Virus record (IMG/VR): IMGVR_UViG_3300021598_001001
Coordinates: 62,001-126,000 of that record
Strand: one strand, 5' to 3'
Source: a virus
Length of the DNA stretch: 64,000 nucleotides
Of this stretch, positions 18,099-22,995 are shown in pieces (positions within the stretch are counted from its first letter, which is position 1; each line of letters starts with the position of its first letter). Both the position numbers and the translations under genes were made by a program. The notes beneath the pieces are model-generated. The model had not been told where the DNA came from and ran no database searches. It saw only the letters and a list, made by a program, of their open reading frames with translations.

Positions 18099-18129
18099 TA
18101 TAATAAAATGGGTAAGTAGGTGAGTGTTA

Positions 18130-18636
18130 ATGAAGGTTGTTGAAAGACACCGATACGAAAACGGAGAAATCTTTGAGACTAGATCTCTGAGGTTTCTCCC
18201 TTTTTATTACTCGGAAGAGATTGCTGAATCTCTGATGAAGATCATTCGTAATCAACTTACACCTGACTTGCTGACTAAAAAGTATCGCAAGGAGAATGAA
18301 ACAAACCCAATGTACGGGCATTGTTATCATTCAACTCAAGCCCTATTTTATCTCATGGAACCTCACGATTTGATTCCAATGAGTGGAATAGATTACAGAG
18401 GTGATACACACTGGTGGTTGTATGATGACCGAGGAGTTATCTATGACACAACCGCAGATCAGTATTACTCTGTGGGACAAGTTCCCCCACATGCTGTTGG
18501 AAAGAAAACAGCTTGGTATGGTTGGAAACAACGACCACACCAAAGATCTCTCACTTTAATCATGAGAGTTCTTGATGCTTGTAACATTGAGTATTGTTAC
18601 GAAACCATCAAACCTCAGACGGGGGGCTTGACATAG
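18130..18636 (+). CDS. Hypothetical protein with possible Cys-His-Asp triad
   Basis: 168 residues. YGHCYHSTQALFYLM (Cys at the start of a helix), DTHWWLYDDRG (His on a strand) and VIYDTTADQYY (Asp) occur in the order expected for a papain/transglutaminase-like fold. This is inference from pattern, not a family match. ATG at 18130 is preferred; GTG at 18124 is possible. Its end overlaps the hairpin upstream of the next promoter. Confidence 0.7.
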   Translation: MKVVERHRYENGEIFETRSLRFLPFYYSEEIAESLMKIIRNQLTPDLLTKKYRKENETNPMYGHCYHSTQALFYLMEPHDLIPMSGIDYRGDTHWWLYDDRGVIYDTTADQYYSVGQVPPHAVGKKTAWYGWKQRPHQRSLTLIMRVLDACNIEYCYETIKPQTGGLT

Positions 18637-18656
18637 TTCTTTGTCTGATCTATACT
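18628..18656 (+). promoter_or_regulatory. Consensus sigma70 promoter for the DUF262-HNH gene
   Basis: TTGACA (18628-18633), 17 nt, TATACT (18651-18656). CAGAC upstream pairs with GTCTG in the spacer, which could form a small operator-like hairpin. It gives the nuclease gene its own strong promoter with a leader of about 80 nt. Confidence 0.75.
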
Positions 18657-18746
18657 CAAAACATCAAAGACACGGACACAATCCCAACTCTTAATTGAGA
18701 CGGTCAAAACTCCAAGTCCTAGATGCAAACCTTACAAACAAAAACC

Positions 18747-20126
18747 ATGAAAACTAACACCAAAACGTACACTCTGACTGTATCTCAACTGGCTTCTCTA
18801 CAAAAGGACACCAAGATTTATCTTGATGAAGCCTTCCAGTCCAATACACGTTGGAATACTGCAATGAATCAAGCATACATTAAGTCTGTGCTTGAAGGTA
18901 AAGCAATTACCCCCATTACTTTAGGTAAAATCTCTGATCTTTTGAGTTCTATTGAACTTCATTATGGTCCTACTCATTCTGACTATCAATTTTTTAGGGA
19001 TCTTCTAGATCAAGATTTCATCTATATCACGATTGATGGAAATAATCGTGATAACTGCATCTGCAAGTTCCTGAACAATGAGTTTCCCCTCTCTGAAGGG
19101 AAATACTATATTGAACACAATAACATTGTGTACTTTGAAGCGACTAAGAACAACAAGTATTTCAAAGATCTAGATGCAGAAGTTCGCAACTACATTGAGA
19201 ACATTTCTCTGAACACTCTTGTAGTTTTGCAATCTGATCGTAAGGGTCTTGCTGAACTGTTCAGTAACATTAATGAGGGTCTTCCCCTTAATAATCAAGA
19301 GAAACGCAACGCTACTCCTTGTCGTTTCGGTGCTCTTGTTAGGAATCTTGTTCAAAGTCACTTGAATGGATTTTCTATGTTGTATAGTTCTAAGAACATC
19401 AATCGTCGTTATCCCGATGAATTGGTTGTGACAATTTCCACAATCGTTGCTCATGGGATAAAGAATCTGGATAAGAATACTCTAGATGCTGCTTATGGTG
19501 ATTCTACGGTTGAGGTTATTTCTTTCAACAAAACCGCAACTATTGTTGAACAACTTTCTAAGATTGTTGTCAACTATGGTGCTGCTGGATTTGATGTTGG
19601 TGGTAAGAAAAACTCTAACCTGATTGACTTTGCAATGTTGTTGAACTATCTCAACAATAACTCGATTGTCATCGAAGATTACGAAGCTTTCTACAACTGG
19701 TTCACTGAAAGTCAGGGAGAACGAATTGAAGATCCTACCATTCTCTACTATGGTAAAAAGGGTAATAATCCTCGTAGTTATGCTGGTCTTCTCCGTGGAT
19801 CTTCTTCCAATTTCCTTCAAATCCGACTCAGTAAGTTGGTTGATTCCATCTCTTCTACACCAGACAACGTTCTGACCTTCCGTGACAAAGATCGCAAGTA
19901 TGATCCTAAGATTCGATTCTCTCTTTGGAAATCTCAGGGTGGGCGATGTGCATTGACTGGTGAACCTATTGATGCACGTCACATCTACGATGGATCTGTG
20001 ACTCATATCGACCATAAAGATCCTTGGTCGAAAGGTGGACAAACTACAGTTGAAAATGCACAACTGGTATTTGCAAATGCAAATCTCCGTAAAGGTGCTC
20101 AACTCGTAGAAGTTCCCTCTCTTTGA
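18747..20126 (+). CDS. DUF262-like protein with C-terminal HNH endonuclease
   Basis: 459 residues. The N-terminal part resembles DUF262 (ParB-like NTPase fold of GmrS-type proteins): ITIDGNNRDN (about residue 95) stands where the family has DGQQR, and ELFSNINEGLPLNNQEKRNA matches the conserved Asn/Glu helix. The C-terminus is an HNH nuclease: CALTGEP (about 401), THIDHKDPWSKGG (about 420) and NAxLRKGA (about 448). DUF262 plus nuclease is the architecture of modification-dependent restriction enzymes such as GmrSD. In a phage it could cut competing DNA or host DNA. ATG at 18747 or 18723. A split helicase follows. Confidence 0.82.
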   Translation: MKTNTKTYTLTVSQLASLQKDTKIYLDEAFQSNTRWNTAMNQAYIKSVLEGKAITPITLGKISDLLSSIELHYGPTHSDYQFFRDLLDQDFIYITIDGNNRDNCICKFLNNEFPLSEGKYYIEHNNIVYFEATKNNKYFKDLDAEVRNYIENISLNTLVVLQSDRKGLAELFSNINEGLPLNNQEKRNATPCRFGALVRNLVQSHLNGFSMLYSSKNINRRYPDELVVTISTIVAHGIKNLDKNTLDAAYGDSTVEVISFNKTATIVEQLSKIVVNYGAAGFDVGGKKNSNLIDFAMLLNYLNNNSIVIEDYEAFYNWFTESQGERIEDPTILYYGKKGNNPRSYAGLLRGSSSNFLQIRLSKLVDSISSTPDNVLTFRDKDRKYDPKIRFSLWKSQGGRCALTGEPIDARHIYDGSVTHIDHKDPWSKGGQTTVENAQLVFANANLRKGAQLVEVPSL

Positions 20127-20141
20127 GAACTTATCTAATCC

Positions 20142-20210
20142 ATAAGGATCTCTGATCAATGGCCCTCTTGCCCCGCAACGGGTAAGAGGGTATTCTAGCT
20201 ATGTTGAAAC
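20142..20210 (+). promoter_or_regulatory. Divergent type 1 cassette relative with hairpin
   Basis: Begins ATAAGGATCTCTGATCAATG (shared with 17876), then a stem CCCTCTT/AAGAGGG enclosing CCCG/CGGG, directly followed by TATTCT (20191-20196) and AGCTATGTTGAAAC, a variant of the cassette leader. No CTGTCC half-site at the usual distance. It heads the split helicase. Confidence 0.6.
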
Positions 20211-20218
20211 GCAATTCA

Positions 20219-20359
20219 ATGAATCTCCGACCACACCAAGAACGTGCAGTTGAGGTAATGCAACTGCATAAAAAGGGTCAAATCATTGTTCCCACTGGTG
20301 GTGGTAAAACAATGAAGATGATCAAAGACGCAATGATTCAATTCCAGGAACAGAAATGA
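20219..20359 (+). CDS. N-terminal fragment of a split SF2 helicase (Walker A)
   Basis: 46 residues: NLRPHQERAVEVMQ is the Q-motif-like helix and IIVPTGGGKTMKMI is helicase motif I (ATP-binding P-loop). The stop overlaps the next ATG (ATGA), and motifs Ia to VI are in the next ORF, which lacks a P-loop. The pair is either a true gene fission with translational coupling or a -1 frameshift between two halves. ATG at 20219 is chosen because 20201 lies in the cassette leader. Confidence 0.75.
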   Translation: MNLRPHQERAVEVMQLHKKGQIIVPTGGGKTMKMIKDAMIQFQEQK

Positions 20360-21465
20360 TCGAAATGCAATCACAAACTGAAAAAACGATTGTTGTTGTT
20401 GCTCCTCGTATTCTTCTCGCAGAACAACTTTGTTCCGAGTTTCTGGAGTTTATCACCAACGCAAGTGTGATGCACGTTCACAGTGGTGAAACTCATCACT
20501 TTTCGACTACCAAACCCCAAGAGATTTCTAACTGGTGGGTGAATACTCGTGGTCACAAACTAATCTTCACCACTTACAACTCTCTGGAGAGGTTGCAACA
20601 ATCTCGCATCAAGGTTGACACCATTTACTTTGACGAAGCTCACAACTCCGTCAAACGCAACTTCTTCCCTGCAACTGAATACTTCAGTCAGGAAGCTGAC
20701 CGTTGTTACTTCTTCACTGCGACTCCCAAACATTCACTCGCAGTTGGTAAGCCTGGGATGAATGATGTAGAAGTTTATGGCCAAGTCATTTGTAATGTTC
20801 CTGCACCTGAACTTGTCGAAGGTGGTTACATCCTGCCTCCGAAAGTTATCGCAAAACAACTTCCGATGGTAAAGTCTGGTAAGATTCCTGCAGATCGTGA
20901 CTGTGAGAATCTGATTGAGACTCTGGATGAATGTGGTAAGGGTAAAGTGTTGATCTGTGCGAAAGCTACCAAACAGATCTCTGCACTGATGTCTGAGACT
21001 GACTTCATTCAACAACTGCAAGATCGCGGATTCTCTTACCTCTACATCACCGCAAAGACTGGTGCAATTATTGATGGTAAGAAGGTGAATCGTGAGGTGT
21101 TCTTTGATACTCTCTCTGCATGGGGTAAGGATGACTCTAAGAAGTTCGTTGTTCTCCACCACTCCATCCTTTCTGAGGGTATCAATGTGTCAGGTCTGGA
21201 AGGTGTCATCTTTATGCGTTCGATGGACTACATTGGTATCTCCCAAACCATCGGCCGTGTGATTCGGATGCACCATGATGATGCAGCTCGCATCCATAGT
21301 GGTGAACTTGTCCCTGGTGATGTTGACAACTATACCAAATCTTTCGGTCTAGTTGTTGTTCCTGTCTTCAACAAAGTTGGGATCTCTACTCACCAGAAGA
21401 TCCAAGCTGTGGTGGATACGATCTTCCAAAAAGGAATGCCCGCTATTTCTGTCGTAAAACGATGA
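20356..21465 (+). CDS. SF2 DEAH-type helicase, lacking motif I
   Basis: 369 residues with motif Ia (VVAPRILLAEQL), motif II (IYFDEAHNS), motif III (FFTATPK) and motif VI (QTIGRVIR). It resembles ResIII/type III restriction helicase domains and T4 UvsW-like enzymes. Without the Walker A of the preceding 46-residue ORF it could not hydrolyse ATP alone. It follows a DUF262-HNH nuclease, the combination expected of a nuclease-translocase module. It overlaps the next gene by 4 nt. Confidence 0.85.
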   Translation: MIEMQSQTEKTIVVVAPRILLAEQLCSEFLEFITNASVMHVHSGETHHFSTTKPQEISNWWVNTRGHKLIFTTYNSLERLQQSRIKVDTIYFDEAHNSVKRNFFPATEYFSQEADRCYFFTATPKHSLAVGKPGMNDVEVYGQVICNVPAPELVEGGYILPPKVIAKQLPMVKSGKIPADRDCENLIETLDECGKGKVLICAKATKQISALMSETDFIQQLQDRGFSYLYITAKTGAIIDGKKVNREVFFDTLSAWGKDDSKKFVVLHHSILSEGINVSGLEGVIFMRSMDYIGISQTIGRVIRMHHDDAARIHSGELVPGDVDNYTKSFGLVVVPVFNKVGISTHQKIQAVVDTIFQKGMPAISVVKR

Positions 21466-22016
21466 TGGAAAAGTGGGAAGTCTACGCTGAAGGCACCTTC
21501 AACAATATGAGGGCCAATGCACACAACTGGGAACGATCTTTCGATGACAAACGAAAGATCTCCCGTGATTTTTACTACGGGGTTTTTGATGCAGGAAATC
21601 CCAACCCTACGAACCTGATCAGTGAACAAGCTTTGGAGAATCAACTCTCCAAACAATACAGGCTAAATACTCTGGATCACTACCACTCTCCACAATTTGT
21701 TGGTCGAATGATTATGGAGAATCGAGACAAATATCTAGAGGATTATGAAGAGTTCAAGAAGATCTTTCTGGTCTGCACACAACAAATTGTTGTGACCAAA
21801 AAGGAGAATGAATCTCTGTCATTCTTGACTGCACCTGACAAAGAAGATTATAAGGTTCTTGTACCTACCAATCTCAAGTACAACCATCTTGGTATCAGAT
21901 TGTATCAGAGACAAGAGGGTAAAACTAGGTGGAAAAACTCCGATCCAATTGATTCCAACATTCTGGAGATTCCTGAAGATCTGTTAGAATATGAGAAAAA
22001 GTATCTAGTAACGTAA
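21462..22016 (+). CDS. Hypothetical protein translationally coupled to the helicase
   Basis: 184 residues, alpha-helical and charged (FNNMRANAHNWERSFDDKRK, EDYEEFKKIFLVC). It overlaps the helicase stop and its own stop overlaps the next start. Not recognised; by position it could be a helicase partner. Confidence 0.7.
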   Translation: MMEKWEVYAEGTFNNMRANAHNWERSFDDKRKISRDFYYGVFDAGNPNPTNLISEQALENQLSKQYRLNTLDHYHSPQFVGRMIMENRDKYLEDYEEFKKIFLVCTQQIVVTKKENESLSFLTAPDKEDYKVLVPTNLKYNHLGIRLYQRQEGKTRWKNSDPIDSNILEIPEDLLEYEKKYLVT

Positions 22017-22456
22017 TGAACTACAAGTTTATACCAGATAAGTACCAACTATGTAAAAATGTAACTTGGGAAGATGTAATCAATAAAATGGATGTGGAGA
22101 TCTACAATCAATCACACAAATTGATTGTAGACTATGGAATCGCTCCAACAATTATCTTACATGAAGACTATTATCCAGGATCTATTTCATCTGCATTTAA
22201 CGAAGTCCAGCAAGATCTAAATATTGAAGTTCTTCACATTTATACTTCTCTTGGTAGAAATGCCAAGACTTTTGGTAGACATTGTGATACAATGGATGTA
22301 GTAATTGTTCAATCCATAGGGAGAATCTATTACGATTTTGATTGTGGATCTAGGGTAGAACTTAATCCAGGAGATGCACTCCACATTCCGAAAGGAATCT
22401 ATCATAACCCCATTGTTTTTGAACCTAGAGTTACCCTGAGCTTTTCTTGGACATGA
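22016..22456 (+). CDS. Cupin/JmjC-like Fe(II) oxygenase domain protein
   Basis: 146 residues. A metal motif HxD in GRHCDTMD (about residue 88) and a later ALHIPKGIYHNPIV strand pair with His at about 122 and 129 give the cupin-like HxD...H pattern of JmjC-type 2OG hydroxylases. The short length suggests a minimal barrel. Substrate unknown. Confidence 0.75.
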   Translation: MNYKFIPDKYQLCKNVTWEDVINKMDVEIYNQSHKLIVDYGIAPTIILHEDYYPGSISSAFNEVQQDLNIEVLHIYTSLGRNAKTFGRHCDTMDVVIVQSIGRIYYDFDCGSRVELNPGDALHIPKGIYHNPIVFEPRVTLSFSWT

Positions 22457-22995
22457 CCGCAGACTATAATGATTACATGTTTTATGCACCAATTTATCAC
22501 TACGCAGTGAGAGATTGGAAGAATAAAAAAACTTCTTTGATGGAATTGTATAACAGGATTGATAGAAACTTAGAAAGAAAAGATGATGACAGTGTGATTA
22601 CAAATTATCATAAGGATTCACTTTCTATGATAGAAAGTATTTCCGAAATTTTTACTGATGAGATCAATTTGTTTTGTGGTAAAGTTCAATCTCGATTCAA
22701 ATTAGCCTGTGCATGGTTTGAATTGACTGATAAACATGCTTATCACTCAATGCACAATCATGGATGTACGGGATACAGTTCGGTGTGTTACATCAAATAC
22801 AATAGTGATGAACATAAACCCACACATTTTATGTCTCCTTTTCCAAACTTTTTAACTGGTCTTCAACTAACTTATACTCCAGAAGTTGATGAAGGCTCAA
22901 TTATATTTTTTCCATCATATATCAGTCACTTTACTGAACCTAATTTGTCTGATGAGAATAGACTAATCGTATCTTTTAATCTACAATCAGTTTGA
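22453..22995 (+). CDS. 2OG-Fe(II) oxygenase, small phage type
   Basis: 180 residues. SMHNHGCTGYSSVCYIKY (His-rich strand, about residue 100), DEGSIIFFPSYISHFTEPN (distal His, about 158) and ENRLIVSFNL (Arg, about 173) match the 2OG-FeII_Oxy_5-like phage family. ATG at 22453 overlaps the previous stop. With 1787, 2465 and 22016, it makes four likely non-haem iron oxygenases in the window. Confidence 0.78.
   Translation: MTADYNDYMFYAPIYHYAVRDWKNKKTSLMELYNRIDRNLERKDDDSVITNYHKDSLSMIESISEIFTDEINLFCGKVQSRFKLACAWFELTDKHAYHSMHNHGCTGYSSVCYIKYNSDEHKPTHFMSPFPNFLTGLQLTYTPEVDEGSIIFFPSYISHFTEPNLSDENRLIVSFNLQSV

What the first reader, a model, noticed from the sequence alone, without database searches (positions are those of the whole stretch)
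18628..22016. DUF262-HNH nuclease next to a split SF2 helicase: candidate phage restriction-like module
A GmrS-like DUF262 protein fused to an HNH nuclease, with its own consensus promoter, is followed by a Walker A mini-ORF, a DEAH helicase without Walker A and an unknown coupled protein. Nuclease plus translocase is the core of several restriction and defence systems. A phage copy could attack competing phages or host DNA.
Basis: partly seen in the sequence, partly recalled or inferred. Interest (0 to 1): 0.7.

Follow-up and report, generated by a model that had tools for sequence, protein, structure and literature searches.

The report
Swappable ParB-fold genes beside phage helicase
In a virus of cyanobacteria, a probable DNA-cutting protein sits in a gene slot beside a virus-specific DNA helicase, and related viruses refill that slot again and again with unrelated proteins of one DNA-binding fold, which suggests an exchangeable tool for fights over DNA.

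Summary
The genes are as described. A 467-aa DUF262-HNH protein has its own early promoter. It is followed by a 52-aa Walker A ORF, a 369-aa DEAH helicase missing Walker A, and a coupled 184-aa protein.

The helicase is not UvsW. It is the second, cyanophage-exclusive SF2 helicase (T4-GC36); eight of eight isolate genomes carry both.

Adjacency is conserved beyond this clade. Searches with DUF262 or ParB-like proteins alone found the helicase directly downstream in most loci. The partner changes: alleles with about 93-95% identical helicases carry DUF262-HNH, ParB-like proteins or other families between the same promoter and the same stem-loop/promoter. On the helicase tree the partner family changes at least 21 times. 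Most DUF262 relatives lack HNH, so the common theme is the ParB/Srx fold, not the nuclease.

The helicase split is real. It occurs in several lineages in two frame arrangements, and both halves are under purifying selection.

Best reading: an exchangeable early cassette of ParB/Srx-fold proteins beside a constant helicase; here it encodes a GmrSD-like NTP-gated nuclease, probably for DNA conflict. Function is inferred. An obligate nuclease-helicase complex is not supported: promoters are separate, HNH is optional and some slots are empty.

The parts
18124..18636 (+). 170-aa conserved protein (phrog_12251); upstream anchor of the exchange slot
   Evidence: 71-88% identical in the close clade, 53-64% in others
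18628..18656 (+). Early sigma-70-type promoter TTGACA-17-TATACT at the end of the 170-aa gene; retained whatever gene fills the slot
18723..20126 (+). DUF262 (ParB/Srx-type, DGNNR motif) - HNH protein, 467 aa (start may be 18747); present occupant of the slot
19035..19049 (+). DGNNR motif (residues 105-109), counterpart of GmrS DGQQR
19947..20096 (+). HNH nuclease region (CALTG...HIDH...ENAQLV...NLRKG), Cas9-type HNH
20163..20196 (+). Stem-loop followed by promoter-like TTGCCC-17-TATTCT ahead of the helicase (PeSL-like); shared by all slot alleles
20201..20359 (+). Helicase part 1, 52 aa: Q-motif region and Walker A (VPTGGGKT)
   Evidence: dN/dS about 0.07-0.13 against diverged split relatives
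20356..21465 (+). Helicase part 2, 369 aa: DEAH, TAT and QTIGRVIR motifs; overlaps part 1 by ATGA
21462..22016 (+). 184-aa protein of unknown function, ATGA-coupled to the helicase; recurrent helicase neighbour

Best explanation
This is an exchangeable gene cassette next to a constant, cyanophage-exclusive SF2 helicase. The cassette lies between a fixed early promoter in the tail of the 170-aa gene and a stem-loop plus promoter in front of the helicase. By recombination in those shared borders it is refilled with different proteins, most often of the ParB/Srx (DUF262/ParB-like) superfamily. In this virus it holds a DUF262-HNH protein. Inferred mechanism: the ParB/Srx domain binds DNA and an NTP and selects its target, and the HNH domain cuts it, as in single-gene GmrSD-type enzymes. 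It is made early in infection against host or competing phage DNA. The helicase (with the 184-aa protein) is a separately expressed unit that works on the same DNA but does not need the nuclease. Here the helicase is made as two polypeptides, the P-loop on one and the other motifs on the second, by coupled translation. Shown: exchange, adjacency, borders, split and selection. Inferred: target, nuclease activity, early timing and functional cooperation.
For: Slot borders are shared across alleles: promoter, stem-loop and promoter. Different occupants occur beside closely related helicases. Searches by occupant alone recover the helicase: DUF262 16/20 new loci (10/14 at 95% dereplication); ParB-like A2 16/18 (8/9 dereplicated new clusters); an A3 subgroup 10/10. 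The isolate P-SSM2 has an A3 protein 75 nt upstream of its helicase. In 23 whole records the families A1-A4 occur once, one family per record, beside the helicase in 9 of 10. Partner family changes at least 21 times on the helicase tree. The A3 model matches ParB, Noc, PadC and Srx as its top 21 PDB hits; A2 is related to A3 (98.4% probability); DUF262 is GmrSD_N, a ParB/Srx-fold family (PMC4619093). The helicase is distinct from UvsW. Both halves of the split helicase are under purifying selection.
Against: No assay or expression data. About 50 of 110 scorable helicases had no A1-A5 partner beside them, so the pairing is frequent, not universal. The fold of A4 and A5 rests on a motif and weak hits, and A4 also occurs away from the helicase. 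The AlphaFold model of the DUF262-HNH protein failed (pLDDT 39.5). Free partner swapping argues against a tight co-evolved complex.
Confidence: 0.55

Rival explanations
1. Dedicated two-component system: the ParB/Srx-fold protein is an exchangeable specificity or effector subunit that loads or directs the SF2 helicase onto target DNA, as a phage-borne restriction-like machine; HNH is an optional added cutter.
For: Same position refilled repeatedly by one superfamily, on either side of the helicase. Adjacency recovered from three sequence-unrelated occupant families. These families are otherwise absent from the records searched.
Against: Separate promoters and a stem-loop between the genes; helicases without any such partner are common; slots are empty in L121, L122 and L124; partners swap beside near-identical helicases.
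Confidence: 0.25
2. The DUF262-HNH gene is a free-standing homing (marker-exclusion) nuclease that cuts the helicase region of phages lacking it, like T4 SegE beside uvsW.
For: T4 segE lies directly upstream of uvsW and its target is in uvsW (PMC2988022). HNH+ alleles of window and L011 are closer to each other in the nuclease gene (dS 0.19) than in the helicase (dS about 0.5), showing recent transfer of the gene.
Against: The same slot is filled mostly by proteins without HNH, which have no way to home. The architecture is GmrSD-like, not a known homing family. It has an early promoter, whereas T4 endonuclease-specific promoters are middle or late (PMC2988022).
Confidence: 0.12
3. Ordinary hyperplastic-region traffic: ParB-like proteins are abundant accessory genes of cyanophages, and a stem-loop/promoter border beside the helicase is simply a convenient insertion point without functional meaning.
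For: PeSL-mediated shuffling is a known process in T4-type phages (cited in PMC4503421). Other genes (methylase with endonuclease VII, tail fibres) also occur there.
Against: In 23 records (about 1.6 Mb) the ParB-type families were found almost only at this place; occupant-based searches return to the helicase.
Confidence: 0.15

Closest known systems
GmrSD-type (Type IV) restriction enzymes, single-gene ParB_n-HNH form
   Same: DUF262-type N domain with HNH nuclease at the C end in one polypeptide; nearest by domain order (PMC4619093, PMC12373910)
   Different: DGNNR instead of DGQQR; Cas9-type HNH_4 instead of DUF1524; carried by a lytic phage in an exchange slot; most relatives lack the nuclease
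PeSL regulatory cassettes of T4-type phages (Arbiol 2010, Comeau 2014; cited in PMC4503421)
   Same: Stem-loop plus early promoter between genes, shared by alleles and marking exchange borders
   Different: Known as a general shuffling device; here one border pair is repeatedly refilled by one protein superfamily beside one helicase
T4 SegE beside uvsW
   Same: Endonuclease gene directly upstream of an SF2 helicase gene, involved in exchange between related phages (PMC2988022)
   Different: GIY-YIG homing enzyme beside true UvsW; here DUF262-HNH beside a different helicase, early promoter, mostly nuclease-free alternatives
Cyanophage helicase T4-GC36
   Same: The helicase is its ortholog; consistent with the helicase listed as cyanophage-exclusive in 14 of 16 genomes (PMC3037559)
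   Different: Split into two ORFs in this clade; single ORF in all isolates examined
Split phage genes, e.g. nrdA of Aeh1 and gene 43A/43B of phage 25 (PMC2988022)
   Same: One enzyme made as two conserved polypeptides
   Different: Here the cut separates the P-loop from Walker B of an SF2 helicase, and no insertion element lies between

Membership tests
GmrSD restriction enzymes | DUF262 (PF03235) N-terminal domain | tested here: met
   Family members score above or near the cut-off (L158 36.3 bits vs 33.2; L020, L147 below it) and the window protein aligns with them at the conserved motifs; the window protein alone gives no Pfam hit
GmrSD restriction enzymes | DGQQR motif | tested here: not met
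   DGNNR in window and most relatives, EGNNR or DANNR in others
GmrSD restriction enzymes | GmrD/DUF1524 nuclease domain | tested here: not met
   HNH_4/HNH found instead, closest to Cas9 HNH
GmrSD restriction enzymes | Cleaves modified DNA with NTP | not testable with these tools
   needs biochemistry
T4 UvsW helicase | UvsW_N and UvsW.1 domains | tested here: not met
   Present in T4 UvsW, absent in the fused cyanophage helicase
T4 UvsW helicase | Ortholog of uvsW in the genome | tested here: not met
   A separate UvsW ortholog coexists in isolate cyanophages
Type I/III-like nuclease-translocase restriction module | Nuclease and translocase genes always together | tested here: not met
   HNH absent in most relatives; helicase often without partner
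Type I/III-like nuclease-translocase restriction module | Co-expression as one unit | tested here: inconclusive
   Sequence shows separate promoters and a stem-loop between the genes; no transcript data
Homing endonuclease gene | Known homing family and cleavage of the empty allele | not testable with these tools
   No homing-type DNA-binding module seen; cleavage needs an assay
PeSL exchange cassette | Stem-loop plus early promoter at the exchange border, shared by alleles with different genes | tested here: met
ParB/Srx fold | Fold of the slot proteins | tested here: met
   A3 by model and Foldseek (local TM-scores modest), A2 by profile match to A3, DUF262 by family; A4 and A5 not shown

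The most novel reading that the evidence does not exclude
Cyanophages carry a two-part conflict system in which a constant SF2 helicase works with an exchangeable ParB/Srx-fold subunit that sets specificity; adding HNH makes it a cutter; in one clade the helicase itself works as two polypeptides with the P-loop on a separate 52-aa subunit.
Probability: 0.25. Interest if true: 0.82.

Novelty: new variant of a known kind. Interest (0 to 1): 0.6.

Why it matters
It gives a testable role to a long-known, unexplained helicase found in most cyanomyoviruses and links it to a set of 'hypothetical proteins' of one fold. If the partner sets specificity, this would be a modular phage weapon or counter-defence whose target changes by swapping one gene. 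The split helicase would be a natural SF2 enzyme with its P-loop on a separate small polypeptide.

Tried and rejected
(1) Split as assembly or sequencing error: rejected; identical in contigs from several metagenomes and present in diverged lineages. (2) Split as pseudogene: rejected; dN/dS about 0.05-0.13 in most comparisons of both halves (up to 0.34 in a few short h1 pairs). (3) Programmed frameshift: disfavoured; the same conserved ATG starts part 2 while the frame relation differs between form A (+23 nt) and form B (+19 nt). (4) Split caused by the nuclease gene: rejected; HNH+ relatives with fused helicase (L013-L015) and HNH- relatives with split helicase (L035, L040, L042, L056) exist. 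(5) Helicase is UvsW: rejected. (6) AlphaFold of the DUF262-HNH protein: too poor to use. (7) Profile comparison A1-A3, A4-A3 and A2-A4: no similarity. (8) Close relatives in bacterial genomes: none found with the two short motifs used; a distant cellular origin remains open. (9) A3 as a scan query: too divergent, so one member was used. (10) My first ORF caller missed genes hidden by longer antisense ORFs; repeated without that filter.
Full report
Setting. The window is bases 62001-126000 of a 162-kb virus record. All 418 phage records that match the helicase are named Synechococcus, Cyanophage, Prochlorococcus or Marine virus, so this is a T4-like cyanophage.

Observation. The four ORFs are as described. 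The first encodes a DUF262-like domain with an HNH nuclease of the Cas9 type. Pfam does not hit the DUF262 part of the window protein itself. It aligns over its length with relatives that Pfam does recognise as GmrSD_N, one above the curated cut-off, and shares their invariant motifs. The promoter TTGACA-17-TATACT at 18628 is the best in the region. The two helicase ORFs overlap by ATGA: the 52-aa ORF holds Walker A, and the 369-aa ORF holds DEAH, TAT and QTIGRVIR.

What the helicase is. T4 UvsW and this helicase both match PHROG 16, but the cyanophage protein lacks UvsW_N and UvsW.1. Eight isolate genomes each carry two such helicases: a roughly 495-aa UvsW ortholog and this roughly 400-aa one; S-CRM01 UvsW finds the former in P-SSM2 and S-SM2. 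This is T4-GC36, consistent with the helicase listed as cyanophage-exclusive in 14 of 16 genomes (PMC3037559). No UvsW was found in the window's own record, which may be incomplete.

The split. Relatives over 90% identical show three states. Form A (window, L011, L012, L016, L035) has 23 extra bases relative to fused genes. Form B (L040, L041, L042; L056 also appears split) has 19. Fused genes occur in L013-L015, L037, L048, L049 and L053. Both split forms keep the same ATGATG start for part 2 while the frame relation changes, which favours re-initiation over frameshifting. Both halves are under purifying selection: for window against L011/L012, omega is 0.07 for part 1 and 0.09 for part 2. 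More distant helicases are all fused. The split does not follow the nuclease gene.

The slot. Upstream flank (170-aa gene) and downstream flank (helicase) are conserved while the gene between differs. The promoter in the 170-aa gene's tail is present in front of every allele of the close clade, and homology ends at about its -10 element. Homology resumes after the slot gene, at a conserved ATAAGG(A/T)T..CTGATC stretch, a stem-loop and a TTGCCC-17-TATTCT promoter-like element before the helicase start; each stem folds well despite different sequences. This resembles the promoter-early-stem-loop cassettes held to mediate shuffling in T4-type phages (cited in PMC4503421; the primary papers were not held).

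Who fills it. Five occupant families were seen: A1 (DUF262, with or without HNH), A2, A3, A4 and A5. A2 and A3 are related (hhalign probability 98.4%). The A3 model (pLDDT 77) has as its 21 best PDB matches ParB, Noc, PadC, KorB-type and sulfiredoxin structures; alignments are local with modest TM-scores. DUF262/GmrS is assigned to the ParB/Srx fold in PMC4619093. A5 has weak ParB hits; A4 rests only on a GNHR motif. L049 has, beside A2, an endonuclease VII-like gene and an N6/N4 methylase.

Is the neighbourhood meaningful? Searches with occupants alone, without the helicase, were used as a fair test. DUF262: 16 of 20 new loci have the helicase within 600 bases downstream, 10 of 14 after grouping at 95% identity, and 5 of 8 lineages at 70%. 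A2: 16 of 18 loci at 62-100 bases, or 8 of 9 clusters when loci already seen are removed. One A3 member: 10 of 10 (three on contigs already seen, all close relatives). Isolate P-SSM2 shows the same pair 75 bases apart. In 23 whole records A1-A4 occurred at most once each, never two families per record apart from one protein hit by both A2 and A3, and 9 of 10 beside the helicase (A3 was searched in 15 of the 23). Limits: A4 also lies elsewhere, in Syn1 and ACG-2014j; S-SSM7 and Sf-FS3 have DUF262-HNH 2.5-4.2 kb away; and many helicases have no A1-A5 partner.

Descent or refilling? On a tree of 126 helicases the partner family changes at least 21 times among partnered rows, 43 when 'none' is counted (quick tree, support moderate). 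Within the starred clade of 11 rows around the window there are five families. Inheritance from one ancestral pair cannot explain this; repeated refilling can.

How it works. Best supported is an exchangeable early cassette beside a constant helicase. For this allele the domain order of single-gene GmrSD enzymes (PMC4619093, PMC12373910) suggests NTP-gated DNA recognition by the DUF262 domain and cutting by HNH. Likely targets are host or rival phage DNA; that is inference. Cooperation with the helicase is plausible because the same fold returns to the same place. It is not required: promoters are separate, HNH is optional, and some slots are empty. T4 SegE beside uvsW (PMC2988022) is a real precedent for an exchange nuclease beside a helicase, but cannot explain nuclease-free occupants.

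Verdict. The nuclease is one allele of a slot whose constant feature appears to be the ParB/Srx fold. The finding is a new variant of known kinds (GmrSD-like protein, stem-loop exchange cassette), with an unexplained link between one fold and one helicase, and an unusual natural helicase split.

Noticed in passing
L049:546-3172 (also L182): Slot with ParB-like A2 protein followed by an endonuclease VII-like gene and an N6/N4 DNA methylase, resembling a restriction-modification set beside the helicase.
   Followed up: partly
L019:6001-7172 (same contig as L039): DUF262-HNH gene with an internal deletion of about 229 bases, then a switch to a 95% identical helicase: a broken allele, a recombinant or an assembly chimera.
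   Followed up: no
L161:4935-6323 (P-SSM2 PSSM2_038) and L165:565-1938: A3-type ParB-like protein with an extra C-terminal part weakly like the DpnI HTH domain (E 0.014 in P-SSM2), with a dam methylase two genes after the helicase in P-SSM2.
   Followed up: partly
L163:3479-6050 (ACG-2014j): A4-type protein directly after genes annotated R.RsaI endonuclease and DNA adenine methylase.
   Followed up: no
window 21462-22016; L093, L094, L100, L105, L121, L131: The 184-aa protein recurs directly downstream of the helicase at 47-51% identity in distant relatives; function unknown.
   Followed up: partly
window 22016-22995: JmjC/cupin-like gene and 2OG-Fe(II) oxygenase gene directly after the module; absent or swapped in relatives.
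   Followed up: no
G000 (162-kb record): No UvsW ortholog found in the window's own record although isolates have one; the record may be incomplete.
   Followed up: partly
L002:3871-5645 (S-SM2): A gene annotated as type II restriction enzyme and an unknown 379-aa protein lie directly upstream of the helicase.
   Followed up: no
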